DNA from: Brucella daejeonensis
GTDB taxonomy: Bacteria > Pseudomonadota > Alphaproteobacteria > Rhizobiales > Rhizobiaceae
Assembly (NCBI RefSeq): GCF_014199265.1
Contig: NZ_JACIJG010000010.1
Span: forward strand, 122,910 to 186,909
Direction: 5' to 3'
DNA length: 64,000 nucleotides
A program made the translations under genes and the position numbers. The notes under the pieces are model-generated. The model was not told where the DNA came from and did not search any database. It saw only the letters and a program-made list of their open reading frames with translations. Of the stretch, positions 35,807 through 62,544 are shown one piece after another. The stretch's first letter is position 1. Each line of letters begins with the position of its first letter.

Positions 35807-37603
35807 TTAGCTCTTGTCTAATCGGCGCTGGCCCGTTATTGAGCCGCTGCACGCTCGGCATTCGTTATTGATGCTCATTGACTGTGCGATTCTGCAAGGG
35901 TCGTTTACAGTGCTGCACAAAGCGGAGAGGTGGCTGAGCGGTTGAAAGCACCGCACTCGAAATGCGGCATGGGGGCAACTCCATCGGGGGTTCGAATCCC
36001 TCCCTCTCCGCCACTTCAGTCCCTGAGTGGGCACTGAGTTTACGCCACTTCCCGCCACAAGCGTCTGTAGCAGCCGGGACTTCGATCCCATGATGCGAAC
36101 CTCGCCCTCGGCGACCTCGACACGCTGGGCGAGCGCGCGCAGGTGGTCGCGGCGATAGCCGCCGCCTTCGAGCCGGATACGCTCGCGGGCGGTTGCGGCG
36201 AACTTGCGCAGCATCTGCGGCGTTACCGCCTTCTGCCCCGAGTTCTGGAGCATAGCCTGCGCACGCTCTGCATCGACCTTTGCCTGATCGCGGATGGCCT
36301 TGAGACCGTCGATGCGGTCTTTCAGCGCCGGGTCATTCAGATCGGCAACGCCTGCCTCGATGGCGTCATAGAGGCGCTTGAGGCGCAGTTCCGATTCGGT
36401 TGAGCGTTTGTTCAACTCGGCGATATGCTCGCGGCGGCGCTCGGCGTGTTCTTCCCTCCGGTCGAGTGCTGCGGCAAGAACGGTTTCCAGCCGCTCGGGC
36501 TGGAGTAGCTGTTTCTCAAGGTGATTGACGACCAGATCGTCCAGCTTTTCCATCGGCACGGCCATGCCCTCGCAGGCGGTCGGCCCCTGCCGCGCCTTCA
36601 TCGAGCAGGCATAATAACGATAGCGCCCGCCCTTGCCGGTGCGGATGGTCATGGCTCCGCCGCACTTGGCGCAATGGATCAGGCCGGTGAGCATGGTCGG
36701 GCCGCTGATGACGCGGGCGGGCATGACCTTGGGATTACGAGCCTTGAGCAGCTTCTGAACCGCCTCGAAGGTCTCGCGGTCGATGATCGGCGGTACGGGA
36801 ACCGTCACGATCTCGCTGACCGGCTTCAATTCCTTGGTCTTGGACCGCTTGTTGAACTCATGCTCGCCCATATAGGTGCGGCGGGTCAGGATGCGGTGGA
36901 CCTGACCGATGCCCCAGCGCCCGCCGTCGCGGGTGAAGATGCGGCGGCTGTTGAGGTAGGAAACGATATTCTTGACGCCCATCTGGCCGGTGGTGCCGTC
37001 GCCTTCCAGCGCAAGACGATAGATCAGCCGCACCGTGTCGGCGTGGAGCGGGTCGATTTCCAGCTTCTTCTTGGTCTTGGCTCCGCGCTGCTCGGCGGCG
37101 ACGGTGCGATAGCCGATAGGAGGAAGCGAGCCGTTCCAGAAGCCTTGCCGGGCGTTCTCCTTCAGGGCCCGCATGACGTGCTTGGCGTTTTCCTTGGACT
37201 GGTATTCATCGAACAGCGCCATGATCTGCCGCATCATGACGTGCATGGGGTCATCCCCCATTTCCTGTGTGATCGAAACCAGCTTCACGCCGTTCTTCGC
37301 CAGCTTGCGGACATAGAACTCAAGCTCGAAGTGATCGCGGAAGAACCGGCTGAACGAATGGACCACGACCACATCAAAGGGTGCGGGCTTGGACGTTCCC
37401 GCCTCGATCATGCGCTGGAACTCGGGGCGGCGGTCGTTGGTCGCCGATGCGCCGGGTTCGATGAAGGTTTCGACCAGTTGCAGGTTGCGGGACTCGCAAT
37501 AGGCTTCGCCCTGCCGCTTCTGATCGGGAATGGAAACGTCATGCTCGGCCTGCCGCGCCGTCGAGACACGCAGGTAAAGGGCAGCGCGCAGCGGCACGGT
37601 CAT
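35807..37603 (-). CDS. Large serine recombinase (integrase of the tRNA-Ser element)
   Basis: A 598-residue large serine recombinase. The resolvase domain has the nucleophile Ser in YLRVSTARQ and VVVHSFSRFFRDHFELEFY. A recombinase domain (LPPIGYRTV, RRTYMGEHEFN) and a zinc ribbon (CAKCGGAMTI ... YACSMKARQGPTACEG) follow, then a coiled coil. The last approx. 70 residues are not native: WRRGRDSNPRWSCPHAAF onward is the antisense reading of tRNA-Ser and its 5' flank. Start ATG at 37603 with AGGAGA. It probably catalyses integration and excision at this tRNA. Confidence 0.92.
   Translation of the reverse strand: MTVPLRAALYLRVSTARQAEHDVSIPDQKRQGEAYCESRNLQLVETFIEPGASATNDRRPEFQRMIEAGTSKPAPFDVVVVHSFSRFFRDHFELEFYVRKLAKNGVKLVSITQEMGDDPMHVMMRQIMALFDEYQSKENAKHVMRALKENARQGFWNGSLPPIGYRTVAAEQRGAKTKKKLEIDPLHADTVRLIYRLALEGDGTTGQMGVKNIVSYLNSRRIFTRDGGRWGIGQVHRILTRRTYMGEHEFNKRSKTKELKPVSEIVTVPVPPIIDRETFEAVQKLLKARNPKVMPARVISGPTMLTGLIHCAKCGGAMTIRTGKGGRYRYYACSMKARQGPTACEGMAVPMEKLDDLVVNHLEKQLLQPERLETVLAAALDRREEHAERRREHIAELNKRSTESELRLKRLYDAIEAGVADLNDPALKDRIDGLKAIRDQAKVDAERAQAMLQNSGQKAVTPQMLRKFAATARERIRLEGGGYRRDHLRALAQRVEVAEGEVRIMGSKSRLLQTLVAGSGVNSVPTQGLKWRRGRDSNPRWSCPHAAFRVRCFQPLSHLSALCSTVNDPCRIAQSMSINNECRACSGSITGQRRLDKS
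35924..36013 (+). tRNA. tRNA-Ser (anticodon CGA), CCA encoded
   Basis: A 90-nt class II tRNA. The acceptor stem GGAGAGG/CCTCTCC is closed by discriminator G and encoded CCA. The anticodon loop CTCGAAA gives CGA (reads UCG), the long variable arm is ATGGGGGCAACTCCAT, and the T-loop TTCGAAT is intact. It is the presumed attachment site of the element to its right, whose recombinase gene overlaps it in antisense. Confidence 0.95.
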
Positions 37604-37661
37604 GGCAATGTCTCCTTCTCAAACCTTGACTCGGCCCAAACTGGTGGACCGTTGGCCGCGC

Positions 37662-37970
37662 TCAGGCGGCGTTCTGTAACGGGCGCGCGCGCTCAACCCG
37701 CTCGCGCTCCTTGGGCGTGTTCATCACCTCCCAAAGATCGCTGCGTCGCTGCACGTTGAGCCAGAAGTCCGGGCTGGTGCCGAACACACGGGCGAGGATC
37801 AGCGCCGTCGCCGCCGTCACGTTCCTGCGGTTGCCGCATAGTTCGTTGACGTGCTTGCGCTGGACGCCCATCGCCTCGGCGAGCGCGCCCTGTGTCAGCC
37901 CCATCGGCAGCATGAATTCTTCGGTCAGTATCTCGCCGACAGTCGCCGGCTTACGCTTGGTGGTCAGCAT
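37662..37970 (-). CDS. higA: HigA-type antitoxin (addiction module, XRE HTH)
   Basis: A 102-residue antitoxin of the HigA family. PATVGEILTEEFMLPMGLTQGALAEAMGVQRKHVNELCGNRR holds the helix-turn-helix and the family's opening motif, and TSPDFWLNVQRRSDLWE closes it. Start ATG at 37970. It follows higB by 13 bp, the toxin-first order typical of HigBA. It should bind and autoregulate the promoter upstream of higB and help keep the element in the population. Confidence 0.92.
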   Translation of the reverse strand: MLTTKRKPATVGEILTEEFMLPMGLTQGALAEAMGVQRKHVNELCGNRRNVTAATALILARVFGTSPDFWLNVQRRSDLWEVMNTPKERERVERARPLQNAA

Positions 37971-37983
37971 GGTTGCCTCGCTT

Positions 37984-38280
37984 TCATCGGTAGCTGTGAT
38001 CGTCCAGATAAATCCCGTCCGCCTCGCCGCGTTCACCATCCCAGCGGAAGATCAACCGCCATTGCTGGTTGACGCGGATCGAATGGAAACCTGCGAGATT
38101 GCCGCGCAGCTTCTCGAAGTGATTGCTGGGCGGCACGCGCAAGTCCTGATCGGTCACGGCATCGTCAATCATCTGGAGCTTGCGGAACAAGCGGGCTTCA
38201 AGATCGGATGGGATGTTGCGGGAACGAACATCATCCACAAAGAAAGCCCGAAGCCAGCCGTCCCGAAAGCCTACGATCAC
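37984..38280 (-). CDS. higB: HigB/RelE-type toxin
   Basis: A 98-residue RelE-superfamily toxin of the HigB (killer protein) branch. LEARLFRKLQMIDDAVTDQDLRVPPSNHFEKLRG and HSIRVNQQWRLIFRWD are the hallmarks. Family members cleave mRNA on the ribosome. Start is GTG at 38280 (MIVGF). It is upstream of higA in one transcript. Confidence 0.92.
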   Translation of the reverse strand: MIVGFRDGWLRAFFVDDVRSRNIPSDLEARLFRKLQMIDDAVTDQDLRVPPSNHFEKLRGNLAGFHSIRVNQQWRLIFRWDGERGEADGIYLDDHSYR

Positions 38281-38343
38281 AGGTTTACTCCGATATTGGG
38301 CATGTGTACCACTCTATAACTCATATTGCAATGGGGAAATGGC

Positions 38344-38601
38344 TCAGGAGCCGGAGCCAAATAATTCATCGAACAGGTCGCCGAACCATCGCTCGAACAC
38401 CTCGATTTCAGCTTCCGTGACCGGAACGGGATCGGGCCAGTCGTCGGTGACGGTCCATGTGCTGAGGTCGTGCTTGGGCGGCCTGCCGGGGAATGGCCAC
38501 GGATAGCCCAGCAATTCCTCAAGCTGCTCCGACGCCGTGGGCGGTCGTTTGGCGTGCCGGGTTGTCTTCGGCTTGTCGTCGTCCCTGCGGTCAATAATCA
38601 T
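38344..38601 (-). CDS. Small conserved-looking protein, unknown function
   Basis: An 85-residue acidic protein with no family I can name. It contains Trp/Pro-rich blocks (LLGYPWPFPGRPPKHDLSTWTVTDDWP) and a C-terminal EVFERWFGDLFDELFG. Start chosen: ATG at 38601, overlapping the last codons of the alpA-like gene, so translation is probably coupled. Its place between alpA and higB fits an element-maintenance role, but this is only position. Confidence 0.6.
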   Translation of the reverse strand: MIIDRRDDDKPKTTRHAKRPPTASEQLEELLGYPWPFPGRPPKHDLSTWTVTDDWPDPVPVTEAEIEVFERWFGDLFDELFGSGS

Positions 38602-38818
38602 CGAGGAAGTCGAACTCGTTACGCGAGCGTTGCCGCCACCCGGCGGGATCGGCAATCCAGCGGTTGATGTCGGATTCTCGCCATCCAGCGCCGTTGGTGC
38701 TGATCTTCAGTTGGGCCGGGAACGTGCCTTCGGCGATCTTGCGATAGATGGTGGACCGCGACAGACCCGTGCGAGCGCGGACGGTGTTAAAGCGGATGAT
38801 ACGGTCTGGTTGACGCAT
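38591..38818 (-). CDS. AlpA-family DNA-binding protein (excisionase-like)
   Basis: A 75-residue MerR-like/AlpA helix-turn-helix protein: RIIRFNTVRARTGLSRSTIYRKIAEGTFPAQLKI and WRESDINRWIADPAGW. AlpA-type proteins activate or direct excision of integrated elements and are common beside site-specific recombinases. Start ATG at 38818 has AGGAGG. The next gene overlaps its 3' end. Confidence 0.9.
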   Translation of the reverse strand: MRQPDRIIRFNTVRARTGLSRSTIYRKIAEGTFPAQLKISTNGAGWRESDINRWIADPAGWRQRSRNEFDFLDDY

Positions 38819-39139
38819 GATTGCGCTGCCTCCTGCTGGCTGTTTTTGACGATTGCAGAGACCAGACAGAGCAACGAATTGTCATTGCGCAACAGATATT
38901 TACCGTTCGTAGTGCTGTAGCGTAGAAACGGCGGTAAAAAGGAAAACCATACAGGCTGAAACCTCGGCCTCTGCCAAGGTCAATGCCGCGTGTGACGGAG
39001 AGTCTGCGGCCAAGACTGCGGCCTGATTCGAGACTGATGCCGAGTTCGCACCTACGCGGTCTTTGCAGCTTTGCGCCCAGCAGATACTGGCGCTGTATAT
39101 GGATGGGTGAGGCGCGTAAAGCAGAGGGCGAGCGGCGCG
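38819..39139. other. Gap with alpA promoter and traA remnant
   Basis: 321 bp with no intact gene. It holds the leftward promoter of the alpA gene, the decayed traA 3' end (38952-39047), and the rightward 5' region of the HEPN-LOTUS gene. Confidence 0.55.
38952..39047 (-). pseudogene. Remnant of a traA 3' end
   Basis: The minus-strand peptide ELGISLESGRSLGRRLSVTRG, then IDLGRGRGFSL, parallels the intact TraA C-terminus QLGISMDFDSGMRLGRQLAL, then SHGLGRGRGIGL. A 13-base stretch (CTGATGCCGAGTT) is identical in both. Sequence upstream does not match TraA. Confidence 0.7.
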
Positions 39140-40009
39140 ATGACAACATTATCGGACGATGCGCTGCAAACGATTCAGCGTGAAATACAGAGATTGCTGG
39201 GTCGATGCCTACTGCGACTGCAACAGTACGAACGCCTTATCAAGGCAATCGTGGCACATCACGAAATCTCGGGACCGCCTCACGCGCTGGAGGCGATCCG
39301 AGCGGCGCGCGTAACGGAGACCGCGCGCAAGACACTCGGCACACTGATCGGCGATCTCCTCGGATCGTATGTTGTCGTCAACGGCGATCAGACCGCACCC
39401 AAGGACACGATCAATTCATCTGAGGATACGGTTTCGTTCAATTTTCGGATGCAGTTGGGCCTATCCGACATAGATTTCGCCCGGACAGAAACTGAACTTA
39501 GAGAATTGGTGCTGCTGCGGAACAGCTTGGTTCACCACTTCATCGAAGAGCACGACCTCTGGAGCTTGGAGGGATGCCGTGGCGCTCACGGGGCGTTGCT
39601 CGCTGCCTACAGCCGCATCGACCAACACTTTGAACAGCTTCGCGGGTGGGCAGAACATATGGAACAAAGTCGGCGTCTGGCCGATGCTTTTGTCCGTTCG
39701 AATGAGTTTCGGGATTTGGTCATCAATGGCATTGCCCCGGACGGCAAGGTGGATTGGTCTGCCGCAGGCATCGTACGCGCCTTGCGGGAAGCTGCTAAGG
39801 AATTGGCTGTCGATGGGTGGGCATCTATCACGGAGGCGGGCAAGTGGATTGCCGAGCGGTTCCCAGAACAGCTACCTGCAAAATATGGATGCGGCAGTTG
39901 GCGTCAGGTCGTGCATGAATCGCGTGCCTTCGAGATTCGTTACCTTGATATGAATGGTAAGCGCGCTGCGCGGTATCGGGAAAAAGAGAAGCCTGCGACC
40001 TCGCGCTGA
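39140..40009 (+). CDS. Putative RNase: HEPN-like domain fused to OST-HTH/LOTUS domain
   Basis: A 289-residue soluble protein. The N-terminal approx. 170 residues are helical and contain R127-N-S-L-V-H132, an exact RNxxxH motif as in HEPN ribonucleases. Residues about 205-282 (GIVRALREAAKELAVDGWAS, AGKWIAERFPEQLPAKYGCG, SWRQVVHESRAFEIRYLD) match the OST-HTH/LOTUS fold, which binds RNA. Start ATG at 39140 is the first Met giving the complete HEPN-like part. It is on the opposite strand to traA and alpA and looks like inserted cargo. The RNase and defence role is inference from motifs. Confidence 0.72.
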   Translation: MTTLSDDALQTIQREIQRLLGRCLLRLQQYERLIKAIVAHHEISGPPHALEAIRAARVTETARKTLGTLIGDLLGSYVVVNGDQTAPKDTINSSEDTVSFNFRMQLGLSDIDFARTETELRELVLLRNSLVHHFIEEHDLWSLEGCRGAHGALLAAYSRIDQHFEQLRGWAEHMEQSRRLADAFVRSNEFRDLVINGIAPDGKVDWSAAGIVRALREAAKELAVDGWASITEAGKWIAERFPEQLPAKYGCGSWRQVVHESRAFEIRYLDMNGKRAARYREKEKPATSR

Positions 40010-40089
40010 AATACGTTGGCGCTGCGCGCGAAGGGGACAAAACTGGCAATCGCGCCCTCGGTGTCGAGTGGCACTATTCTTGGCGCACT

Positions 40090-43059
40090 CTACAATCCGA
40101 TGCCCCGTCCCCTGCCGAGACCGTGACTGAGGGCAAGTTGCCGCCCGAGCCTCATCCCTGAGTCGAAATCCATGCTGATGCCGAGTTGCTTCTTGCGGCC
40201 TTCGAGCAGGGATTCCATCTGCGGATCGCGTTCCAGACTCATCGCCATGTTGCCCATCTCCGCGCGCGCTGACCTGTAGCCGGAATAGTTGCCCGCCGCA
40301 TATTGCCGGTCGCCGGTCTGTTTGAGTTCCCGGAACCGTTCCACGAAACGGTCGGCGCGGCGCTCCGGGCTGGTCCGAATCTCGGTTTCGAGTTGGAGGG
40401 CGCGGATGGCGCGATTGACCTTGCCCGATCCCGCCTCATGGGCAAGGCTCTCATCCTTGGCATAGGCCGCTTCCGCGTCCTGCCAGCCATAGGGGCGCAC
40501 CTGATCGAATGCCCTGCGGGAATCGACCAGTTCTTCCCATTGCGCCGGGCTTGCCTTGCCCCCGGTATCCTCGGCGTTGAAGACCTGGCCGACGGCATGG
40601 GCATGACGAATGAGCGCCATTCTGCGGGCATGGCGCAAGGCATCCTCCGAGTCTATTCCGGCTTCCTTCGCCGCCGCTTCGATCTCCTGTCTTATCCCCC
40701 TGCCGGCCACCTCCCTTTCCGTCTCGTCTGCGCCGTCCCGAGGTTCGCGGACGCTCAAGATGATGTCGTTGATCCGGTCGAGAACTCTGTCTGGGACGTG
40801 TATCTGTTCAACGGCAACATCACGGGCGCGGAAGGTGATGCCGCGCCGCTCGGCATAGTCCTGCGCCGGGTCGTAATCCGTCGCCATATCCTTTGCCCCG
40901 TCGCACGACAGGGTGTTCACCAGCCTGTCCTGACTGGTGAAGTCGTCGCGGCCATAATGCAGGTCCATGCCGTCGCGGTGACGCGACAGGGCGACATAGC
41001 TGCCGTGGGCGTCCATGCCGGGTGTCGCCAGAACATGGGTGCGGTCCACGGTCATGCCCTGCGCCTTGTGGATGGTCGCGGCATAGCCGTGGTCGATGCG
41101 GTCGTAATCCTTGAGGTCGAACGCGATAGAGCGGCCATCGTCGGTCTGCACGCTCATGCTCTGCGTGCTGACCTGTTCGATGGTGCCGAGCGTGCCGTTC
41201 TTCACCCCAAGCCCGCGCTCGTTTTGCAGGAACATGACGCGATCACCGACGGCAAAGCTGCGTTCGCCACGCTCGACCATTACGCGCACGTCCTCGCCCA
41301 GATCGCCAGCCTCCCGCATCCGGTCGCGGGCGGCCTCGTTGAGTTCCCGCACCTCGGCATTGGTATGGGTGAGAATGATCCTGCTCGCGTCCGGTGACGC
41401 CTGCCGCTGACGGTCCCATCTGTCGATCAGATCGCCGCGCGCCTGTTCACGTGTTTCGGCGGAATGCACCATGTCGTGCGCGTCATAGGCGGCAATGGCA
41501 TTGCCGGTTCTGCCGCTCGCCAGACCGCGCGTGGCGTCACGCTGCCAGTCCTCGCGCTGGCGGCGCACTTCATGGATTTCGACGCCACCGTGACGCTCGT
41601 GGATGGACCGGAAAGCGGCACCGGCTTCGATGGATTGCAACTGCTGCGGATCGCCGACCAGCACGACCTTCGCGCCTGCGTCGGCGGCATGGGACAGAAC
41701 CCGCTCCAACTGCCGCGTGCCGACCATGCCCGCCTCGTCGATGACAAGCACGTCCCGGCTGGTGAGCATGTCGCGCCCGTTCTTCCAGCCATGTTCCATG
41801 CTGGCGATGGTGCGGGACGCAATGCCCGATCCACTTTCGAGATTTTCCGCCGCGATGCCGGACAGGGCAACGCCCCGGACCTCAAAGCCTGACGCCTCCC
41901 AAGCCTCGCGCGCCACGCCGAGCATGGCGCTCTTTCCCGTTCCGGCATAACCGACGACAATGCCAAGATCGCGCCCGTCCGTGACATGCGCAAGCGCCCG
42001 GGCCTGCTCGCCGGAAAGGACAAGGCCGCGCTGTTCGGCGCGCACAAGCGCCTCAATCCTGTCTCTGTCGTTCACCTCATGGCGTTCCCGTTCCGCCATC
42101 ATCTCTGCGGCGCGGTGCAGGCGCTGTTCGGCCTCGATCATATCGCGCGTGGTGAAGCGGTCCTCGCCGCGTCCGTCTTGCCCGAGTTCGACCAACTCGG
42201 GCGAACCGCGCATCGCGCCCATCACCTCGTTGAACTGCTCGATGCCGTCGCTGTGCCGGTGCGCGAACATCGCCATGTCTCGCCGCGTGAAAGTCGATTG
42301 CTGGTGCGTGATCGCGTCCAGCGCAATGGAAGGATCGGCAATGATACGTTCGCCATTGTTGCGCGCGATCTCCCGATGCATTTCCGCCCGGTCTGCGGCT
42401 TCAATGCCTTCGCCTTCGATGCGCTGTGCAGGCGCGCCGATCTGGCTTTGCGGCTCAAGCCCAATGCCCTGCGCCTCAAGGCTGCGATGGTCGACCCGGG
42501 CGTCGATGTCGAGTTCAGCCAGTCGCTCGTTGGCAAGCTCGGCCCATCGTTCCCGCCACCGCTCCACCATCTCCGTGCGGTTCCAGTCCCGAACCTTAGG
42601 ACCGAACCCGTCCTCGTTCACCGACCGCATGTTGAGCATGACATGCGCGTGGGGCTTCGGCATCCCGTCCTCGCCGATGTCCCAATGCACATTGAGGTCG
42701 GCGATCATGCCCTGATCGACAAACTCCGACTGGGCGAAGTCGCGGGCGAGATCGATACCTTGCGCCTGCGTCATCTCACGCGGAATGGCGAACTCCACCT
42801 CGCGGGCAAGCTGCGCATCCTTGCGCACCTCGAACGCCTCGACATCATTCCAGAGCCGTTCGCGGTCGCTCCATGCCTCTGGCGCGTTCTCCGGCAACAG
42901 CACCTCGGAATGAACGACACCGCGCTTGTTGGAAAAATCCTGCACGCGGTCCAGCCGCTCGTCGCGCATCCGCGAAGCCGAACGGTAGGCAGCGGAAGCC
43001 ACCGCACTGCTTCCGGCCTTGCGGCTGATGACCTTGACGTGAAGATGATAGATCGCCAT
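40090..43059 (-). CDS. traA: Ti-type conjugative relaxase/helicase TraA
   Basis: A 989-residue MobA/MobL relaxase joined to a RecD-like helicase. The N-terminal relaxase starts MAIYHLHVKVISRKAG and carries the metal-binding HAHVMLNMRSV. The helicase has the Walker A GYAGTGKSAMLG, a DEAG box (VLVIDEAGMVGTRQLE) and GDPQQLQSIEAG, and DRIDHGYAATIHKAQGMT. It nicks at oriT and unwinds the strand for transfer. Start chosen: ATG at 43059, the standard MAIYH start. oriT is expected upstream, between traA and traC. It may rely on another element's secretion system. Confidence 0.94.
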   Translation of the reverse strand: MAIYHLHVKVISRKAGSSAVASAAYRSASRMRDERLDRVQDFSNKRGVVHSEVLLPENAPEAWSDRERLWNDVEAFEVRKDAQLAREVEFAIPREMTQAQGIDLARDFAQSEFVDQGMIADLNVHWDIGEDGMPKPHAHVMLNMRSVNEDGFGPKVRDWNRTEMVERWRERWAELANERLAELDIDARVDHRSLEAQGIGLEPQSQIGAPAQRIEGEGIEAADRAEMHREIARNNGERIIADPSIALDAITHQQSTFTRRDMAMFAHRHSDGIEQFNEVMGAMRGSPELVELGQDGRGEDRFTTRDMIEAEQRLHRAAEMMAERERHEVNDRDRIEALVRAEQRGLVLSGEQARALAHVTDGRDLGIVVGYAGTGKSAMLGVAREAWEASGFEVRGVALSGIAAENLESGSGIASRTIASMEHGWKNGRDMLTSRDVLVIDEAGMVGTRQLERVLSHAADAGAKVVLVGDPQQLQSIEAGAAFRSIHERHGGVEIHEVRRQREDWQRDATRGLASGRTGNAIAAYDAHDMVHSAETREQARGDLIDRWDRQRQASPDASRIILTHTNAEVRELNEAARDRMREAGDLGEDVRVMVERGERSFAVGDRVMFLQNERGLGVKNGTLGTIEQVSTQSMSVQTDDGRSIAFDLKDYDRIDHGYAATIHKAQGMTVDRTHVLATPGMDAHGSYVALSRHRDGMDLHYGRDDFTSQDRLVNTLSCDGAKDMATDYDPAQDYAERRGITFRARDVAVEQIHVPDRVLDRINDIILSVREPRDGADETEREVAGRGIRQEIEAAAKEAGIDSEDALRHARRMALIRHAHAVGQVFNAEDTGGKASPAQWEELVDSRRAFDQVRPYGWQDAEAAYAKDESLAHEAGSGKVNRAIRALQLETEIRTSPERRADRFVERFRELKQTGDRQYAAGNYSGYRSARAEMGNMAMSLERDPQMESLLEGRKKQLGISMDFDSGMRLGRQLALSHGLGRGRGIGL

Positions 43060-43240
43060 CGCAATCAAGAAATGGCACGGCCAAGCGCACGTCGGAACGA
43101 CGTATAAGCGCGCCCTCCCTCGAAAAAATCTCGGGATGGACCGGGCCGTGCCAGACCGTCCCAGCAACAATACTGCGTTCCGCTGTCTGCGCAACTATCC
43201 TTGCTGCATCAACGACTTGCGACCGGGAAAGGACACGACG
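43060..43240. promoter_or_regulatory. traA-traC divergent region, probable oriT location
   Basis: In Ti-type systems oriT lies between divergent traA and traC. This 181-bp gap has that position and shows short GC-rich blocks and the shared promoters. I could not identify a nic consensus with certainty. Confidence 0.35.
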
Positions 43241-43567
43241 ATGCGGAAACCGAGAGACTATGACGCGGAACTCAAGGCGCTTGAGGACAAGGCGCGGGAA
43301 CTCAAGATACGGAAGGTGCAGCAGTTTGGCGAACTGGTCATCGCCACTGGGGCCGATGGCCTCACCGCCGACGAATTGGCCGGTGCGCTCGTCGCGCTGG
43401 CCGAAACCAAGGATGCCGGAAAGAGGGAGGCATGGGCGAAACGCGGGGCAGCGTTCTTTCGTGGCAGGTCGCGGCGAACTGCATCGGCGTCTGATCGCGA
43501 CGCTGGCGGCGCTGCAACGCAATCGGGCGGCGCGCAACCGGCATCAGGCGGCGCGGGCGCGGCATGA
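43241..43567 (+). CDS. traC: Conjugal transfer protein TraC
   Basis: A 108-residue protein with the TraC pattern: MRKPRDYDAELKALEDKARE, LKIRKVQQFGELVIATGAD and LTADELAGALVALAETKDA. It is an accessory relaxosome protein in Ti-type transfer systems. Start ATG at 43241 follows AAAGGA. The C-terminus is an Ala/Gly/Ser-rich tail. It is divergent from traA and 1 nt before traD. Confidence 0.88.
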   Translation: MRKPRDYDAELKALEDKARELKIRKVQQFGELVIATGADGLTADELAGALVALAETKDAGKREAWAKRGAAFFRGRSRRTASASDRDAGGAATQSGGAQPASGGAGAA

Positions 43568-43568
43568 C

Positions 43569-43835
43569 ATGCGGACATGGCAGGTCGAGCGCCGCAGACG
43601 CACGCGGTATTTGATCGAACTAGGCGGTCTCGTCGTCAAGGCCGGGATAGTGGACCTGACCGGCAATGACCGCGCCATGATCTACGGCGCGATGATCTGG
43701 ATCGCCGAAAAGCTCAAGAGCGAGGACGGCGAACACGCGCGCGGCGTCTGGACAAAGCTAGGAAAGATGGCGTTCGAGATGGAGCGTTCGGCAGGCCCGA
43801 ACGACAGAGTGCAGTCGCAGCAGGATCGGGCGTGA
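43569..43835 (+). CDS. traD: Conjugal transfer protein TraD
   Basis: An 88-residue TraD-like protein: MRTWQVERRRRTRYLIELGG, LVVKAGIVDLTGNDRAMIYG, AMIWIAEKLKSE. In Ti-type systems traC-traD-traG is an operon; here traG is not found after it. The frame extends upstream through traC, but ATG at 43569, one base after the traC stop, gives a protein of normal size. Confidence 0.85.
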   Translation: MRTWQVERRRRTRYLIELGGLVVKAGIVDLTGNDRAMIYGAMIWIAEKLKSEDGEHARGVWTKLGKMAFEMERSAGPNDRVQSQQDRA

Positions 43836-43987
43836 CCGATGGCGGGCGGCGCGGAGACCCCACATATCGCAGCGCCGCCCGCCATCGCGCGGCAACGCCG
43901 CGCAAAAACGGTGAGCATCAGGGCGTTGTGCTGCCGTGGTGGCTTGTGCGATCTTGCCATTATTGCGTTGGAAAGGGCGAATACTGA

Positions 43988-44707
43988 ATGCGGGATCAAT
44001 ATGCTGGGGATGTGAGTGATGTAATCAAATTTGCCTTCCTCCGCGCCCTTGCAGGCAAGGATAGAACACTAGGCATCGCATGGTATTACGCCCCGAGTCA
44101 CGATGGTCGGTCAGATGGTCGGCATCTTGAATGGCGAGACGAAGCGGCGTGGCGCACGCTTGATGAGGAACTGCACACAGGTCTTGCAACCTTGCCGGAA
44201 CGCAGCGTGGCCGCCCTCGAACAGGCGATGATCTGGCCGGAAGGTGCACTGTTTCATCGCGAGCCTGTGCCATCCCGAGTCGAACGACATGCGTGGGGAG
44301 TACGCAAGCGGAGCGCGCTTGATGCTGCCGACATTCTGTTCCTCGATCCCGACAACGGCATAGGCGGAGAAACCGAGAAACACGCGACCTTCTCGGAGGT
44401 CCGGCTGTTGCGCAGGCCCGGACGCGCCATCGTCTTCATCACATTTCCGGGCCGGAGCATGACGCACGATGCCCTTTTGAAGCAGTTGCATGAACGGCTC
44501 TCTATCGAAACGGGCACCGATAACATCGCCACACTGCGAACCAACGTGTCGGTGCCACGCGCCGCTGGCTCGTCGTCTTATGTGCAGCGCCAGCGCTGGT
44601 TTACAGTCATCGACCCTGACGCCGAACTGATGGCTAGGGCGCACGCTTTTGCTACTGCGCTTGCATCTGTTCCCCGCGTCCGCGCGAAATTGGAATGTCT
44701 GACGTGA
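43988..44707 (+). CDS. Conserved protein of unknown function with DPDNG motif (operon gene 1)
   Basis: A 239-residue protein. Its opening (DQYAGDVSDVIKFAFLRAL) and the later LDAADILFLDPDNGIGG recall a family of approx. 230-residue bacterial proteins starting NQYxGDxxDxxKY, whose function I do not know. The DPDNG segment and flanking strands (RAIVFITFPGRSM) could be a nucleotide or SAM pocket; this is inference. Start ATG at 43988. It overlaps the next gene by 13 bp, which points to one operon with the following three genes. Confidence 0.7.
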   Translation: MRDQYAGDVSDVIKFAFLRALAGKDRTLGIAWYYAPSHDGRSDGRHLEWRDEAAWRTLDEELHTGLATLPERSVAALEQAMIWPEGALFHREPVPSRVERHAWGVRKRSALDAADILFLDPDNGIGGETEKHATFSEVRLLRRPGRAIVFITFPGRSMTHDALLKQLHERLSIETGTDNIATLRTNVSVPRAAGSSSYVQRQRWFTVIDPDAELMARAHAFATALASVPRVRAKLECLT

Positions 44708-45291
44708 GCGTTTCCGAGAACATCCGCGCGTTGGCGCGCGAAGGGTTGAAGGTTGCCGAGATTGCAAGGCGACTGGGGATTCGTTACCAGCATGCCTACA
44801 ATGTGTTGAAGCAGTCTCCTGCGCCGTCGTCGGCTGCTGCACGGGACAGTCAAAGGAAGGTGTCACTCGACCTAACCGACGCCCTTGTTCTCGTTTCATG
44901 TGTGAGTCAAAAGCTCACCCGACCAGCTCCTGCACAACTGCTTTATCGTTCGGAATGGTTCCTCAAAGTGCGGAAGGTGGTCGAAAGCCAAAAGGCTGAC
45001 TGGCTTATACTGTCCGCACTCCACGGCGTGATCGCGCCGGATACAGAAATTGCCCCTTATGAAAAAACGCTCAATACCGCTGACGTGATTGAGCGCCGCG
45101 CATGGGCAGAAAACACTCTCCGACAATTAGGCCCACATCTGATCGGACGGCGACGGGTCGTGATATTTGCTGGACAACGCTATCGCGAGTTTCTGGTCCC
45201 CGCATTGCACGACGACGGTTACGAAGTGGACGTGCCAATGGCGAACCTGCGTATTGGAGAACAATTGGCATGGCTGACCTCGCGATCATGA
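44695..45291 (+). CDS. HTH plus YaaA/DUF6884-like protein (operon gene 2)
   Basis: A 198-residue protein. Residues 1-40 form a helix-turn-helix (ENIRALAREGLKVAEIARRLGIRYQHAYNVL). From about 60 it has LVLVSCVSQKLTRPAPAQLLYRSEWFLK, WLILSALHGVIAPDTEIAPYEKTL and FAGQRYREFLVPAL, the pattern of DUF6884/YaaA-like proteins. YaaA binds DNA and protects against peroxide; DUF6884 genes are often phage- or island-borne. The fusion to an HTH suggests DNA targeting. Overlaps both neighbours. Confidence 0.7.
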   Translation: MSDVSVSENIRALAREGLKVAEIARRLGIRYQHAYNVLKQSPAPSSAAARDSQRKVSLDLTDALVLVSCVSQKLTRPAPAQLLYRSEWFLKVRKVVESQKADWLILSALHGVIAPDTEIAPYEKTLNTADVIERRAWAENTLRQLGPHLIGRRRVVIFAGQRYREFLVPALHDDGYEVDVPMANLRIGEQLAWLTSRS

Positions 45292-46019
45292 GCAGGACAG
45301 ATGATCTTAACCGCCTGTATCGGATCTTGGACCGGCTGGAAGTTCTGACGGGTGGCAAAAGGTTTCTGGCTCAACTTCCCCCTTCGAGAACTTGGCCGCG
45401 AAGGGGTGTTTATTTCTTCTTTGAGCCGGGCGAAACCCGTACAGGCAGCGGTCACGGCCCGAGGCTCGTCCGTGTAGGCACGCATGCTTTGGGTGCTGGC
45501 GCGCGCTCAACCCTACATCAACGTCTGCGCCAGCACGCTGGCAGGTCGTCCAGCCTCGGCGGAAACCATCGGGGGTCAATCTTCAGATTGCTTGTTGGCG
45601 AGGCTCTAATCGCTCGTGGTGACTGCCCGGAGTGTCCGTCTTGGGGGGTGAAAGGCGATATTGGGAAGGCTGCGGAAATGCTGACCATGCAAAGGGCCGA
45701 GTTGGCAGCCGCTGAGGCACCAATTGAAGCCGCCGTATCTGAGTATTTGGGTAGACTTCCCTTTTTGTGGCTTCCCGTGGACGATGAGCCGGGGCCTGCC
45801 TCCCTACGTGGTTACATCGAGCGGAATGCGATTGCGCTCACAAGCGGCCTGCACGAGCCGATGATTGATCCACCCTCACCGTCATGGCTGGGCTTCCGTT
45901 CGGGCAGGGATAAGGTCCGCCGCTCCGGCCTTTGGAACCAGCGACATGTAGATGAGAACTACGAGCCTCGCTTTCTCGATGTGCTGGAAACAGCTATCGA
46001 ACGCAGTACAGATTCGTAG
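45270..46019 (+). CDS. GIY-YIG-like protein (operon gene 3)
   Basis: A 249-residue protein. RGVYFFFEPGETRTGSGHGP, RLVRVGTHALGAGARSTLHQ and RLRQHAG follow the GIY-YIG order: GxYFF strand, VRVGTHA in place of YIG, then a helix with Arg and His. The catalytic Glu would be near the end (candidate in EALIARGD or later). Such folds cut DNA. Start chosen: ATG at 45270, with GGAG upstream and 22 bp inside gene 2; ATG at 45288 overlaps the stop as ATGA and is an alternative. Confidence 0.65.
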   Translation: MADLAIMSRTDDLNRLYRILDRLEVLTGGKRFLAQLPPSRTWPRRGVYFFFEPGETRTGSGHGPRLVRVGTHALGAGARSTLHQRLRQHAGRSSSLGGNHRGSIFRLLVGEALIARGDCPECPSWGVKGDIGKAAEMLTMQRAELAAAEAPIEAAVSEYLGRLPFLWLPVDDEPGPASLRGYIERNAIALTSGLHEPMIDPPSPSWLGFRSGRDKVRRSGLWNQRHVDENYEPRFLDVLETAIERSTDS

Positions 46020-46049
46020 AACGATAGAGCAAATAGGGAAATACAGAGC

Positions 46050-47957
46050 ATGGCAGGGGCGTCCTTCCAGACTAATCCTATCGACCTTCACCGGCTGCTC
46101 GATGAGTGCCATCGGGGTATCATCCAGTTGCCGGATTTTCAGCGAAGCTGGGTCTGGGACGAAGATCGGATCAAGAGCCTGATCGCCTCGATTTCGCGCG
46201 CCTTCCCCGTCGGTGCGCTCATGTCGCTCGACACCGGCGGGCCGGTCAATTTCAAGCCCCGCCCTGTCGAAGGCGCGCCAGCGGAAGCCCGAAAGATAGC
46301 GCCGCAATCCCTTCTGCTCGATGGTCAGCAGCGCATGACTTCGCTCTATCAGGTGACGTTGCGCGGCAAGGTCGTGGAAACCGTCACACCGAAGAAGAAG
46401 CGCGTGAAACGCTGGTTCTATCTCGACATTGCCAAGGCGATTGATGAGACGGTGGACCGCGAGGAAGCTGTGATAGGCGTGCCGGAAGATCGCGTGGAGC
46501 GCACAGATTTCGGACGCGAAGTCGCTCTCGACCTCTCCACGCCGGAAAGGGAATACGCCGCGCTGATGTTCCCCGTCAGCCAGGTATTCGATTGGGACGC
46601 ATGGCAGGACGGATTCAACGACCACTGGTCGGGTGACGAGCACAAGGCGGTGCGCGAGCAGTTCCGCACCTTCAAGAAAGAGGTGCTGGAAAACTTTAAG
46701 ATGTATCGCGTGCCGGTGATCGCGCTCGACCGCTCGACCTCCAAGGAAGCCGTCTGCGTGGTGTTCGAGAAGGTGAATACGGGCGGCAAGCCGCTCGATG
46801 CCTTCGAGCTGGTCACGGCGATGTATGCGGCCTCGGGCCACGAGTTGCGCAAGGACTGGTATGGCGATGAAGGCGTCAAGGGCCGCCACCAGCGACTTGC
46901 CGATACCCTGCGCCCCGCGGATTCCGATGCCGGCATTCTAGCCGGTGTCGGCAATACCGATTTCTTGCAGGCCATTTCGCTCTTTTTCACCCGCGACCGG
47001 CGGCGTGCCGCCGAACAGGCGGGCAAGGAAGGCAAGGAATTGCCTGCCGTGTCGGGCAACCGGCAAGCCCTGCTCGACCTGCCGCTGGAAGCCTACAAGA
47101 AATATGAGGCGCAGGTGGAACGCGGCTTCATACAAGCCGCCAAGTTCCTGCACATGCTCCATATCTACCGCATTTTCGATCTGCCCTATCAGTCGCAGAT
47201 TGTGCCACTGGCGGCGATCCTCGGCGACATTGGCGATGCGTGGGAGCATGAAGCCAACCGGGCGAAGCTGGTCCAGTGGTATTGGAACGGCGTATTCGGC
47301 GAGCTTTACGGCTCCGCTGTCGAAACGCGCATCGCCAAGGATTTCATGGAGGTCACGCGCTGGCTGAGCGGCGGGCCGGAGCCTTCGACGGTCAGCGAAA
47401 CCATCTTCCGCTCCGACCGCCTGAAAACCATGCGGATGCGGCTTTCAGCGGCCTATAAGGGCATGAACGCCCTGTTGATGAAGGAAGGCGCGCAGGATTT
47501 CCGGTCGGGCCAGAAGTTCGACCATACGGTATTTTTCGGGGAGAACGTGGATATTCACCACATCTTCCCACAGGACTGGTGCCGGACGCAGGGTATCAAG
47601 CCTGCGGTGTTCGATTCCATCATAAACAAGACGCCGCTGTCGTATCGCACGAACAGGATCATCGGCGGCGTTGCGCCAAGCGAGTATCTGGCGAAGCTGG
47701 AAAGTGGAAACAACTCCACGCCGCCCATCGCCAGCGAAAAGCTGGACAGCTATCTGCAATCGCACCTGATCGACCCCGCCCTTCTCCGTGCCGACAAGTT
47801 CGAGGCGTTCATGGAAGATCGGCAAAAGCGCCTGCTTGGCCTGATCGAACAGGCGATGGGCAAGGCTGCCTATAGTGGCAACGTCCCGGAAGAAGGCGAG
47901 GACACCGAAACAATCGAAGATGACGCCGAAGCGGCCTTGCTCCTTCCGACAGGCTGA
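46050..47957 (+). CDS. GmrSD-like DUF262/DUF1524 protein (operon gene 4)
   Basis: A 635-residue protein. The N-terminal DUF262 domain has LPDFQRSWVW (27-36) and DGQQRMTSL (91-99), the ParB-like nucleotidase motifs. The C-terminal part has DIHHIFPQDWC (about 500-511), the HNH motif of DUF1524. This is the single-chain layout of GmrSD type IV restriction enzymes, which cut glucosylated hydroxymethylcytosine phage DNA using NTP. Start ATG at 46050, 30 bp after gene 3. It is the best-understood member of the operon and the reason to suspect phage defence. Confidence 0.85.
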   Translation: MAGASFQTNPIDLHRLLDECHRGIIQLPDFQRSWVWDEDRIKSLIASISRAFPVGALMSLDTGGPVNFKPRPVEGAPAEARKIAPQSLLLDGQQRMTSLYQVTLRGKVVETVTPKKKRVKRWFYLDIAKAIDETVDREEAVIGVPEDRVERTDFGREVALDLSTPEREYAALMFPVSQVFDWDAWQDGFNDHWSGDEHKAVREQFRTFKKEVLENFKMYRVPVIALDRSTSKEAVCVVFEKVNTGGKPLDAFELVTAMYAASGHELRKDWYGDEGVKGRHQRLADTLRPADSDAGILAGVGNTDFLQAISLFFTRDRRRAAEQAGKEGKELPAVSGNRQALLDLPLEAYKKYEAQVERGFIQAAKFLHMLHIYRIFDLPYQSQIVPLAAILGDIGDAWEHEANRAKLVQWYWNGVFGELYGSAVETRIAKDFMEVTRWLSGGPEPSTVSETIFRSDRLKTMRMRLSAAYKGMNALLMKEGAQDFRSGQKFDHTVFFGENVDIHHIFPQDWCRTQGIKPAVFDSIINKTPLSYRTNRIIGGVAPSEYLAKLESGNNSTPPIASEKLDSYLQSHLIDPALLRADKFEAFMEDRQKRLLGLIEQAMGKAAYSGNVPEEGEDTETIEDDAEAALLLPTG

Positions 47958-47987
47958 TGCGGCAATATCGTTATCTATGGTAGGGCT

Positions 47988-48031
47988 ATGGCATAAACGT
48001 AGTGATCATCACTATCGGTCGCGGCCCGCCA
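47988..48031 (+). repeat. Diverged direct repeat, left copy
   Basis: GGGCTATGGCATAAACGTAG, then a variable core and CGGCCCGCC, resemble the sequence at about 59099-59141 in the same orientation, with many substitutions in the middle. The two copies border the 48-59 kb redox cluster. Confidence 0.4.
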
Positions 48032-59914: not shown

Positions 59915-60532
59915 ATGCCGCAAAAAATAGATGTATCGGATCTGGTTGTTGATTTCATCGGGGGAGCCGTCGGTCATCGCTTTCGTTCGGGCGAAGGGCG
60001 CAACCAGCCGCTCGCCCGCGCCGCTGGACTGACACGCGATGTGATGCCGGACATTGTCGACGCGACGGCCGGTCTCGGGCGCGATGCCTTCCTGCTGGCC
60101 TCGCTCGGTGCAAAGGTAACCCTGATCGAACGTTCCGCGAGAATGCATGAGCTGTTGGCCGAAGGACTGGCCCGCGCCGCAGCACAAGGCGGGCGCTATG
60201 CCGAAACAGTTGCGCGGATGACCTTGCTGCGCGGCGATTCCTGTACCCTCCTGCCGGAACTGAAACCACAGGTCGTTCTGGTCGATCCCATGCATCCACC
60301 CCGCGGAAATACCGCTCTCGTCAAAAAGGAAATGCGCCAGATTCGCGAAATTGTCGGCACGGATCCCGACGCCGAAAAACTCATGCATGTGGCGCTGGAA
60401 GCAGCGCAGAACAGAGTGGTGCTGAAATGGCCCTTACGTGCGGAACCAATGGCCGGCTTGCGTAAACCCTCGCACCAGATCCTCGGCAAGAGCACCCGCT
60501 ACGATGTGTTTGTGAAGGCGAAAATCGCCTGA
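59915..60532 (+). CDS. rsmJ: Class I SAM methyltransferase, RsmJ family
   Basis: A 205-residue protein: VDATAGLGRDAFLLASLGAKVTLIER, HELLAEGLARA, VVLVDPMHPPRG, and KWPLRAEPM match RsmJ, which methylates G1516 of 16S rRNA. It lies 8 bp after the pseudouridine synthase gene, so both may act on rRNA. Its last bases overlap the antisense tail of the neighbouring recombinase. Confidence 0.88.
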   Translation: MPQKIDVSDLVVDFIGGAVGHRFRSGEGRNQPLARAAGLTRDVMPDIVDATAGLGRDAFLLASLGAKVTLIERSARMHELLAEGLARAAAQGGRYAETVARMTLLRGDSCTLLPELKPQVVLVDPMHPPRGNTALVKKEMRQIREIVGTDPDAEKLMHVALEAAQNRVVLKWPLRAEPMAGLRKPSHQILGKSTRYDVFVKAKIA

Positions 60533-62271
60533 GGGCGAAGCCGCGATCCTGACAGTCGGAGCGGGCTTCCGGCGCGTGGGAACGCAAGAAGCCCCACGGC
60601 GGGGACCATGGGGCTTTTTCGATAATTTTGGTTGCGGGGGCGTGCATCGGCTACGAGTATAAGACCGGGTTCCCTTTGGGCTTCTTCCGCCTTGATGAAG
60701 TCGAGAATACCGAACAACTCGCCGCGTAGCTCGGCATGAACCTCGCCGCGCTTTTCGCCGGGCGTGAGAATGATTTCCCCGATAAGGGAGCGAAGAGCTT
60801 CCGCCGCCTGCCTGCCGCCGTCCGGATCGCTGAGTGCTTCGGTCAAACGCTCGACTCGAAGGCGGTAGAGATTAGCGATATTCGGATGAACGTCCGGCAC
60901 ATCGGCGGGCGCTTGCGCCATGCGGACGGTGATTTCAGCCTTCTGGCGTTCAAGTTCATCCATGCGGGCCTTCATGCTCGGCTGATACATGCCATCTTCG
61001 ATAGCCGCGATTATCCCGACAATCGCCTTCTCGATTTTGGCAAGTGCTTTCTGGTCGGTCTGCACCTGTGTACGCAGATCACGGTTGAGGCGGTTCATTT
61101 CCTCCGCATAGGCTTTGACAGCTTCGGCAACCGATTCCGATGATACAAGCCGCTCTTTCAGGCCACTGAGGACACGGGCTTCTATGTTCTGGCGGGTGAT
61201 GGAGCGACCATTGTCGTTGGTGCCACGCCGATGATGGTTGAGGCAGGCATAGCGGTTAGGCGTGATGATGCCGTATTTGCCGCCGCAGCATCCGCAGGTC
61301 AGAAGGCCGGAAAGGAGATGAACCGGTCTGTTTGCCAGATGGACGCGCTTCATGCGACCTTCGAGTGTGTTTGCTGGGTTCGGACCAAAGATTTCCGATA
61401 TCTGCTTCTGGCGTGCACGGGTGGCGTTCCAAAGTTCGTCGTCCACGATGCGTAGGGGCGGAACCTCGGTCCTGATCCATGCGCTTTCCGGGTTGATGCG
61501 CGATACGCGCCTGCCGGTGGATGGGTCTTTGATATACCGCAGGCGGTTCCAGACCAGAACTCCTGCATATAGCTCGTTATTGATGATGCCGGTTCCCCGA
61601 CTGACATGGCCGCGAATGCTGGTGTCACCCCATGCACGGCCAAGCGGACCGGGAACGCCTTCTCGATTGAGATCTTTAGCGATTGACTTCGGGCTTTTGC
61701 CGGACGCGAATTCGCGGAAGATGCGGCGGATGGTGTCGGCTTCCTCGGGGATGATTTCCCGGTCGCCACGGATCGGCTCGCCGTTGGCGTCGAACTTCTT
61801 CACCACCTTGTAACCGTAGCAAAGCCCACCTCCTGCCTTGCCCTTCTCCACCCTGCCCCGAAGACCACGATGTGTCTTCATGGCAAGGTCTTTCAGGAAC
61901 AGAGCATTCATCGTGCCTTTCAGGCCGACATGAAGCTCGGAGATTTCGCCTTCAGCCAATGTCACTATGGTGACGCCTGCGAATTTCAGATGTTTATAGA
62001 GCGTGGCAACGTCCGCCTGATCGCGGCTGATACGGTCTAGCGCCTCGGCCAGAACCACCGTGAACATGCCACGCTGCGCGTCCCGCACAAGTTGCTGAAT
62101 GCCAGAACGTAAGATTGTGCTGGAACCGGAAATGGCCGCGTCCTGATAGCTACCCGTCACCTGCCAGTGTTCCCATGCTGCATATTCCTCGCAAAGCCGG
62201 AACTGATCTTCAATGGATGCTTCCCGCTGATTATCCGAAGAATAGCGGGCATACAAAGCTACACGGGTCAT
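60499..62271 (-). CDS. Serine recombinase (integrase of the tRNA-fMet element)
   Basis: A 590-residue large serine recombinase. The resolvase domain has the nucleophile in YARYSSDNQREASIEDQ, and EALDRISRDQAD. The recombinase domain (GLCYGYKVVKKFD, RGTGIINNELYAGVLVWNRL) and the zinc ribbon (CGCCGGKYGII ... CLNHHRRGTND) follow. The native protein ends at about 60641; the rest (from NQNYRK on) is read from chromosomal DNA beyond the attachment site, over the rsmJ terminator and its 3' end. A small gene precedes it by 18 bp. Confidence 0.93.
   Translation of the reverse strand: MTRVALYARYSSDNQREASIEDQFRLCEEYAAWEHWQVTGSYQDAAISGSSTILRSGIQQLVRDAQRGMFTVVLAEALDRISRDQADVATLYKHLKFAGVTIVTLAEGEISELHVGLKGTMNALFLKDLAMKTHRGLRGRVEKGKAGGGLCYGYKVVKKFDANGEPIRGDREIIPEEADTIRRIFREFASGKSPKSIAKDLNREGVPGPLGRAWGDTSIRGHVSRGTGIINNELYAGVLVWNRLRYIKDPSTGRRVSRINPESAWIRTEVPPLRIVDDELWNATRARQKQISEIFGPNPANTLEGRMKRVHLANRPVHLLSGLLTCGCCGGKYGIITPNRYACLNHHRRGTNDNGRSITRQNIEARVLSGLKERLVSSESVAEAVKAYAEEMNRLNRDLRTQVQTDQKALAKIEKAIVGIIAAIEDGMYQPSMKARMDELERQKAEITVRMAQAPADVPDVHPNIANLYRLRVERLTEALSDPDGGRQAAEALRSLIGEIILTPGEKRGEVHAELRGELFGILDFIKAEEAQREPGLILVADARPRNQNYRKSPMVPAVGLLAFPRAGSPLRLSGSRLRPQAIFAFTNTS
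60593..60617 (+). terminator. Terminator after rsmJ
   Basis: AAGCCCCA and TGGGGCTT pair around a 12-nt loop and are followed by TTTC on the plus strand. On the minus strand it could also terminate tRNA-fMet before integration of the element. Confidence 0.65.
60629..60641. repeat. Left attachment repeat of the tRNA-fMet element
   Basis: TGGTTGCGGGGGC is identical to 63906-63918, the complement of the tRNA-fMet 3' end. Confidence 0.75.
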
Positions 62272-62289
62272 GGTCAGTTCTCCGTTCGA

Positions 62290-62544
62290 TCAATCCTCGT
62301 CTGCTTCGCCCTCATTGTCTCCGGTGCTGCGAAGCTCATCATTATCGTTGGCGGTGGCGGCGTGCAGCCGCTCGAAGTCTTCTCGCGCCATCTGCCTGCC
62401 AATGAGGCGAGCAATGGACAGCACAACCTTGTCCAGTTTTTGCCATGGTGTAATATCGCTGTCGTCATTCTGACGTTGCAGCGGATGATTGTCATTGGCT
62501 GGTTTCCAGCCTTCATCCGATGGCGGTTTTGCTTCGTCTTCCAT
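62290..62544 (-). CDS. Small recombinase-associated protein, unknown function
   Basis: An 84-residue hydrophilic protein with a helical core (WQKLDKVVLSIARLIGRQMA, REDFERLHAATANDND). I recall similar short proteins beside serine recombinases in alphaproteobacteria; function unknown, perhaps a directionality or accessory factor. It ends 18 bp before the recombinase start. Confidence 0.65.
   Translation of the reverse strand: MEDEAKPPSDEGWKPANDNHPLQRQNDDSDITPWQKLDKVVLSIARLIGRQMAREDFERLHAATANDNDELRSTGDNEGEADED

What the first reader, a model, noticed from the sequence alone, without database searches (positions are those of the whole stretch)
43988..47957. Four-gene, overlapping cargo operon: candidate undescribed defence system
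Seen: four same-strand genes with overlaps of 13 and 22 bp and a 30-bp gap, encoding a DPDNG-motif protein, an HTH plus YaaA/DUF6884-like protein, a GIY-YIG-like protein and a GmrSD-like DUF262/DUF1524 protein. Known: GmrSD is a type IV restriction enzyme; GIY-YIG proteins can be nucleases. Inference: tight coupling inside a mobilizable element, directly after traD where traG is expected, suggests one functional module with two nucleases and a DNA-targeting or modification-sensing part.
Basis: partly seen in the sequence, partly recalled or inferred. Interest (0 to 1): 0.8.

Follow-up and report, generated by a model that had tools for sequence, protein, structure and literature searches.

The report
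Mix-and-match nuclease cargo of mobile element
A 12-kb mobile DNA element beside a tRNA gene carries four genes that likely help a bacterium cut foreign DNA; in other genomes they come apart into three separable pieces, and the second gene's predicted DNA-binding start often stays behind gene one while the predicted cutting part attached to it is exchanged.

Summary
The four genes, their order and tight spacing are real, look intact and show purifying selection. They fill the right-hand cargo slot of a 12-kb element beside tRNA-Ser. They are not one obligate four-gene system. (1) g2+g3 match both proteins of PADLOC's untested candidate PDC-M57. Of 19 other g3 loci, 13 have a partner with CxxxK/LSAxxG motifs adjacent or fused (background 1 of 2,999 ORFs), so this pair is the solid unit: a predicted base-inspecting, YaaA-like domain plus a GIY-YIG-like nuclease. 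(2) g4 is a GmrSD-like (type IV) protein found without the others on sphingomonad plasmids; a sister element (L009) has a different predicted nuclease in that slot. (3) g1 matched no named family; its confident model has the RlmJ methyltransferase fold but DPDNG instead of DPPY. New here: in 10 of 20 close g1 loci the same HTH follows g1, while what is fused behind it differs (DUF6884, a GIY-YIG-type domain, or neither). So: a known candidate pair plus a known enzyme type, with a new RlmJ-fold/HTH element that looks like a swappable-nuclease platform. Defence function is predicted, not shown.

The parts
36014..48031 (.). Integrated mobilizable element (about 12.0 kb) beside tRNA-Ser; g1-g4 fill its right end
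   Evidence: Similarity to the 29 same-genus loci examined ends at 36013-36025; similarity to the sister elements L009, L010 and L022 ends at 48031 in all three; both edges end in CCGCCA
35924..36013 (+). tRNA-Ser(CGA), apparent integration site
   Evidence: ARAGORN
35810..37603 (-). Large serine recombinase ORF (its frame runs on over the tRNA gene)
   Evidence: Resolvase, Recombinase and Zn_ribbon_recom domains
40090..43194 (-). MobA/MobL-TraA relaxase-helicase
   Evidence: TraA annotation of plasmid relatives
43136..43835 (+). Two small TraD-family genes (43136-43567, 43566-43835)
   Evidence: PF06412 twice
43988..44707 (+). g1: RlmJ-fold protein with DPDNG in place of DPPY; unnamed family
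   Evidence: No PADLOC, NCBIfam or PHROG hit and no Pfam hit over cut-off; AF2 pLDDT 95.5; RlmJ tops both structure comparisons
44695..45291 (+). g2: HTH + DUF6884 (PADLOC PDC-M57A); start may be GTG 44704
44704..44814 (+). HTH segment of g2, often kept behind g1 while what follows is exchanged
   Evidence: DNA similarity to L011, L013 and L023 ends at 44810, to L018 at 44816; HTH-region protein search
44887..45279 (+). DUF6884 domain (YaaA-like fold per Pfam paper) with CVSQK and LSALHG motifs
45270..46019 (+). g3: GIY-YIG-like nuclease (PADLOC PDC-M57B; PF26468 precomputed for its relatives); start may be ATG 45288
46050..47957 (+). g4: GmrSD-like DUF262 protein with an HNH-type motif
   Evidence: own GC3 of 76.4% against 57-62% for g1-g3
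47980..48031 (+). Conserved right end of the element (52 bp)
   Evidence: Shared with L009 (94% over these 52 bp), L010 and L022

Best explanation
The four genes are the cargo of a 12-kb mobile element and are likely a stacked set of DNA-cutting defences made of three separable pieces, not one four-part machine. Shown: the pieces separate in other genomes; the g2-type domain and g3 form a recurrent pair, sometimes one protein; the HTH start of g2 often stays with g1 while what is fused behind it changes. Inferred: the DUF6884 domain of g2 would inspect or flip a (modified) base in incoming DNA and g3 would cut there; the HTH and g1 would form the constant part that positions or licenses whichever nuclease is attached. 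g1 is predicted to be an RlmJ-fold enzyme or ligand sensor that keeps the catalytic Lys and Asp positions but has lost the DPPY and GxG signatures. g4 would act on its own as an NTP-using, modification-dependent (type IV) endonuclease.
For: PDC-M57A/B matches. A CxxxK/LSAxxG partner adjacent (within 200 bp) or fused in 13 of 19 M57B loci; background 1 of 2,999 ORFs; single-protein fusions in L145, L134 and L136. DUF6884 has a YaaA-like fold with a base-flipping AlphaFold3 model (PMC11701544 passages). HTH behind g1 in 10 of 20 close loci: DUF6884 fused in 4, GIY-YIG-type domain in 3, neither in 3. Among 120 listed of 142 proteins with this HTH: 85 one GIY-YIG-type domain (84, plus 1 called by the P0115 C-terminus), 32 DUF6884, 3 matching neither (they read as a second GIY-YIG type). 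One g1 protein, P0115, carries such a domain itself. DUF6884-type rows are not one clade on the g1 tree (p-AU 0.027). RlmJ fold of g1. Slot 4 holds g4 in the window, L010 and L022 but in L009 a protein with weak LEM-3 GIY-YIG and PD-T4-3 matches. PD-T4-3 is a type IV enzyme, CMoRE (PMC12923530 abstract and passages). g4's GC3 differs from g1-g3.
Confidence: 0.5

Rival explanations
1. A restriction-modification-like set: g1 would methylate or otherwise mark host DNA at a site chosen by the shared HTH, and g2/g3 (or the exchanged nuclease) would cut unmarked DNA at that site.
For: RlmJ is an N6-adenine methyltransferase and g1 has its fold; the Lys and Asp positions shown to be needed in RlmJ (K18, D164; PMC3814359 passages) correspond by eye to K14 (nearly invariant) and D120 (invariant) of g1; g1 and the HTH persist while the nuclease changes.
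Against: Motif IV is DPDNG, not DPPY; the only GxG of g1 lies next to that motif, not at motif I; RlmJ's Y4/H6 tail and adenine-binding motif III appear absent (read by eye); profile comparison with RlmJ gives 1% probability.
Confidence: 0.17
2. A toxin-antitoxin or self-regulating module: the HTH represses the operon and g1 or the nuclease is toxic, stabilising the element.
For: HTH at the N-terminus; overlapping genes; carried on a mobile element.
Against: The element already has a HigB toxin with an HTH neighbour; the HTH is fused to nuclease-type domains rather than forming a small antitoxin; g2-g3 type pairs exist without g1.
Confidence: 0.12
3. Counter-defence or establishment genes that help the element survive in a new host (DNA repair or antirestriction) rather than defend the host.
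For: A DUF6884 gene lies near antirestriction, ssb and KleE genes on pCMS1 and M57B next to an ArdC-like gene in Haloarcula; YfjM was found among proteins interacting with DNA lesions (PMC11701544 passage); M57 pairs occur in viral contigs.
Against: GIY-YIG, HNH and GmrSD-type nucleases are typical of attack; slot 4 is filled by type IV-like proteins.
Confidence: 0.15
4. Chance accretion at a cargo hot spot: the genes have no joint function beyond each being useful alone.
For: Different GC3; independent occurrence of each piece; all four together seen only in one element type.
Against: Overlapping genes, the repeated HTH-g1 link across effector types, and fusions of g2-type with g3-type domains.
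Confidence: 0.2

Closest known systems
PDC-M57 (PADLOC-DB 2.0.0 candidate defence system, proteins PDC-M57A and PDC-M57B)
   Same: g2's DUF6884 part and g3 match the two proteins and are adjacent and overlapping.
   Different: g2 carries an extra N-terminal HTH and is coupled to g1, which matched no PADLOC model; no paper in the library uses the name PDC-M57, and the PDC passages I saw do not mention it.
GmrSD / BrxU / SspE (DUF262 + DUF1524 enzymes)
   Same: g4 has the DUF262 domain, DGQQR and an HNH-type DIHHIFP motif.
   Different: No DUF1524 model match; PADLOC's best matches are PDC-M55C and HEC-05, with SspE weaker; substrate unknown.
RlmJ (23S rRNA m6A methyltransferase, DUF519)
   Different: DPDNG instead of DPPY, no motif I GxG, shorter; no detectable sequence relation. 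The genome has its own PF04378 (RsmJ/RlmJ-type) gene elsewhere.
Uzume protein UzuA (PADLOC)
   Same: UzuA-type proteins stand directly before g1 in L003, L018, L021 and L079; L003's scores 9e-83 against UzuA.
   Different: Absent from the window; g1 matched no PADLOC model.
CMoRE / PD-T4-3
   Same: L009 has a protein with a related GIY-YIG region in the slot where the window has g4.
   Different: Match limited to the N-terminal part, E 1.4e-6.

Membership tests
PDC-M57 (PADLOC candidate) | M57A-type DUF6884 protein | tested here: met
   E 1.9e-34
PDC-M57 (PADLOC candidate) | M57B-type protein | tested here: met
   E 1.3e-85
PDC-M57 (PADLOC candidate) | The two genes adjacent | tested here: met
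   overlap by 22 bp, or 4 bp with the alternative start
PDC-M57 (PADLOC candidate) | Protection against phage | not testable with these tools
   no experiment; no paper found for the name
GmrSD-type type IV restriction enzyme | DUF262 / GmrSD_N domain with DGQQR | tested here: met
   E 9.1e-28; DGQQR at residue 91; motif described in PMC10952713 passages
GmrSD-type type IV restriction enzyme | DUF1524 / HNH nuclease domain | tested here: inconclusive
   no Pfam match at E up to 1, but DIHHIFP motif at 501-507
GmrSD-type type IV restriction enzyme | Cuts modified DNA only | not testable with these tools
   needs enzyme assay
RlmJ methyltransferase family (for g1) | RlmJ fold | tested here: met
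RlmJ methyltransferase family (for g1) | Motif IV DPP(Y/F) | tested here: not met
   DPDNG; D120, P121, N123, G124 invariant and D122 nearly invariant in 60 rows; motif definition from PMC3814359 passages
RlmJ methyltransferase family (for g1) | Catalytic Lys/Asp pair (K18, D164) | tested here: inconclusive
   K14 nearly invariant and D120 invariant; correspondence by eye, and for D120 by a low-probability local profile alignment
RlmJ methyltransferase family (for g1) | Sequence homology | tested here: not met
   hhalign probability 0.2% and 1.15%
GIY-YIG nuclease superfamily (for g3) | GIY-YIG fold | tested here: inconclusive
GIY-YIG nuclease superfamily (for g3) | GIY and YIG motifs, conserved Arg and Glu | tested here: inconclusive
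   GVY at 46, RVG (not YIG) at 68; R85, H89, E149, E153 invariant in 43 rows
DUF6884 (for g2) | Domain over Pfam cut-off with CxxxK and LSAxxG | tested here: met
   155.6 bits against cut-off 30; motifs at 69 and 106; motifs named in PMC11701544
   full order in 2 of 20 close g1 loci, both in the same element type

The most novel reading that the evidence does not exclude
g1 plus the HTH is the constant core of an undescribed, modular defence family: an RlmJ-fold protein with a rewritten active site (DPDNG) that senses or makes a nucleotide-type signal and licenses an HTH-guided nuclease whose catalytic head is swapped by recombination (DUF6884+GIY-YIG, two other GIY-YIG types), much as type I systems swap specificity halves.
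Probability: 0.25. Interest if true: 0.75.

Novelty: new variant of a known kind. Interest (0 to 1): 0.5.

Why it matters
It turns a vague four-gene candidate into three testable pieces: a recurrent but untested base-inspection/GIY-YIG-like pair, an RlmJ-fold family with no name in the libraries searched and an unusual invariant active site, and a type IV-like protein. If the g1-HTH core really carries exchangeable nuclease heads, it would show how mobile elements diversify DNA-cutting defences while keeping the sensor, and would give DUF6884 (YaaA-like fold, function unknown) a physiological role.

Tried and rejected
Four-gene obligate unit: rejected.

Defence-gene enrichment around distant g1 relatives: 98 adjacent and 108 far proteins scanned with PADLOC at E up to 1e-10. 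Adjacent: 46 families, two of them (mad3, AriA) with two members, the others shown with one; far: 106 families, those shown with one member each, many from a single type I specificity protein. The tool gives no per-protein total, so no enrichment is shown. Pfam tally of the 98: among the 25 of 92 families shown, Macro, AAA_15, AAA_21, GIY-YIG, rve_3 and SMC_N have two members, the rest one.

UzuA profile: the four loci it matched (L003, L018, L021, L079) were its own seeds, and no further locus matched; the independent evidence for L079 is phmmer E 7e-10.

Sequence link g1-RlmJ by profile: not found; solved-structure sequence search gave one irrelevant E 0.48 hit. Foldseek on g3 found nothing significant.

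g3 in 50,697 phage records: no match at E 1e-5. g1 in viral contigs: two distant relatives, E 1e-20 and 1e-12.

Contig-length matching of protein lists as a stand-in for genomic context: 5 g1/HTH-DUF6884, 6 g1/HTH-GIY and 10 g3/HTH-DUF6884 coincidences at 2 kb or more. Indirect; the g1 coincidences 3253, 2755 and 3428 join proteins from different sources and may be chance, as may the single g3/HTH-GIY coincidence (3428).

The partner motif test used motifs named in the Pfam paper, but the spacing limits, the 200-bp limit and an L[ST]A variant were my choice, made after seeing some of the loci.

Rows left out: g1 loci beyond the best 80 of 277 relatives were not returned; the HTH search listed 120 of 142 proteins. 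The 20 'close' loci are L003, L009-L025, L031 and L032; in several (L012, L014, L023, L031, L032) a frame of g1 or of what follows it is broken; they were counted as found. L129 and L130 look like near-duplicates and were counted apart. Of 15 plasmid hits listed for the cargo region (23 in all), I opened two g4 ones.

Papers: PMC11701544, PMC3814359, PMC10952713, PMC11811056, PMC12988326: passages only; PMC12923530: abstract, outline and passages; PMC8565338: passages, nothing relevant; others seen as search listings only.

Full report
OBSERVATION. Relatives suggest that translation of g2 and g3 may start at GTG 44704 and ATG 45288, each overlapping the previous stop by 4 bp. In ten comparisons with L009, L010 and L016 (g4 with L010 only) the genes differ mainly at silent sites (dN/dS 0.05-0.24). 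GC3 is 57-62% for g1-g3 but 76% for g4, close to the relaxase's 77%, a first hint of two origins.

CONTEXT. The genes lie in a 12.0-kb element beside tRNA-Ser(CGA). In the 29 same-genus loci compared (34 of 35 genomes matched), similarity to the window stops at 36013-36025, the 3' end of the tRNA. Similarity to sister elements in L009 (Xanthobacteraceae MAG), L010 (Brevundimonas nasdae) and L022 (a proteobacterial MAG) ends at window base 48031 in all three. The element has a large serine recombinase, a HigB toxin with an HTH neighbour, an AlpA-type regulator, a LOTUS-domain protein, a MobA/TraA relaxase and two TraD-family proteins. The cargo sits between the TraD genes and the right end.

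EXCHANGE BEHIND g1. Of 20 close g1 loci (63% identity or more: L003, L009-L025, L031, L032), the HTH of g2 follows g1 in 10 by tblastn: fused to DUF6884 in L009, L010, L016 and L022; to a different, GIY-YIG-type domain in L003, L018 and L023 (in L023 in two frames); to neither in L011, L013 and L032. L012 keeps only the first residues. In L014 a g3-type frame follows g1 directly; in L015 an AAA ATPase that I read as McrB-like follows within about 140 bp. DNA similarity to the window ends at 44810-44816, the end of the HTH, in L011, L013, L018 and L023. A protein search restricted to the HTH region lists 120 of 142 proteins: 85 with that GIY-YIG-type domain behind it (84 by the Ensifer domain, 1 by the P0115 C-terminus), 32 with DUF6884, and 3 matching neither, whose sequences read as another GIY-YIG type. 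The label comes from source annotations and reading; Pfam and PADLOC did not match the examples tried. P0115 is a g1 protein with such a domain of its own. On a g1 tree of 34 rows the DUF6884-type rows are not one clade (p-AU 0.027) and at least three changes separate DUF6884 from GIY types, but 16 of 30 inner branches are open and ten rows were labelled by contig-length coincidence. UzuA-type proteins precede g1 in L003, L018, L021 and L079, the last a Firmicute with a distant g1.

SLOT FOUR. g4 is GmrSD-like. It occurs at 80-83% DNA identity on the four sphingomonad plasmids listed with a DUF262 hit, in the two opened without g1-g3 and behind a 726- or 730-aa HTH protein. In L009 the same slot, ended by the same stretch, encodes a protein with weak matches to a LEM-3-like GIY-YIG domain (below cut-off) and to PD-T4-3 (1.4e-6); PD-T4-3 is the type IV enzyme CMoRE (PMC12923530, abstract and passages).

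HOW IT LIKELY WORKS. Inferred: the g2 HTH and DUF6884 domain place and inspect, g3 cuts; g1 is the constant partner of the HTH; g4 is a separate type IV enzyme. Confidence is high that there are three separable pieces and that g2-type/g3-type is a real pair; moderate for DNA restriction as the outcome; low for the role of g1.

VERDICT. A new variant of a known kind: a known candidate pair and a known enzyme type, plus an unnamed RlmJ-fold/HTH platform with exchangeable nuclease-type domains.

Noticed in passing
window 35810-37603 (-): The serine recombinase frame runs antisense across tRNA-Ser (35924-36013) and beyond the inferred left end of the element at 36014, so integration may have changed its C-terminal end.
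   Followed up: partly
window 39071-40006 (+): A protein with a C-terminal OST-HTH/LOTUS domain (PF12872, 2.3e-9) sits inside the mobile element; unusual in an element of this kind (my judgement).
   Followed up: no
window 60502-62837 (-): A second serine-recombinase-like ORF by its first residues (60502-62271), with 62723-62834 similar to a stretch of L013: possibly another integrated element or remnant.
   Followed up: no
L079:6975-8558, L003, L018, L021: UzuA-type proteins lie directly upstream of g1 relatives in Alphaproteobacteria, a cyanobacterial MAG and a Firmicute, so g1 may be an unlisted partner of Uzume.
   Followed up: partly
L041, L088, L089: Distant g1 relatives lie about 1.3-2.2 kb downstream of a shared ATPase family that looks McrB-like; L041 and L088 also share macro-domain and vWA-type neighbours (names are my reading of the sequences).
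   Followed up: no
L005, L214: Plasmid M57B and DUF6884 genes lie near ArdC-like or antirestriction genes, which would fit a counter-defence role.
   Followed up: no
L207:2777-4957, L208:2741-4933: g4 relatives on two sphingomonad plasmids are preceded at 19-28 bp by a 726/730-aa HTH protein; beyond the HTH no Pfam domain was found in the one scanned: perhaps their native partner.
   Followed up: partly
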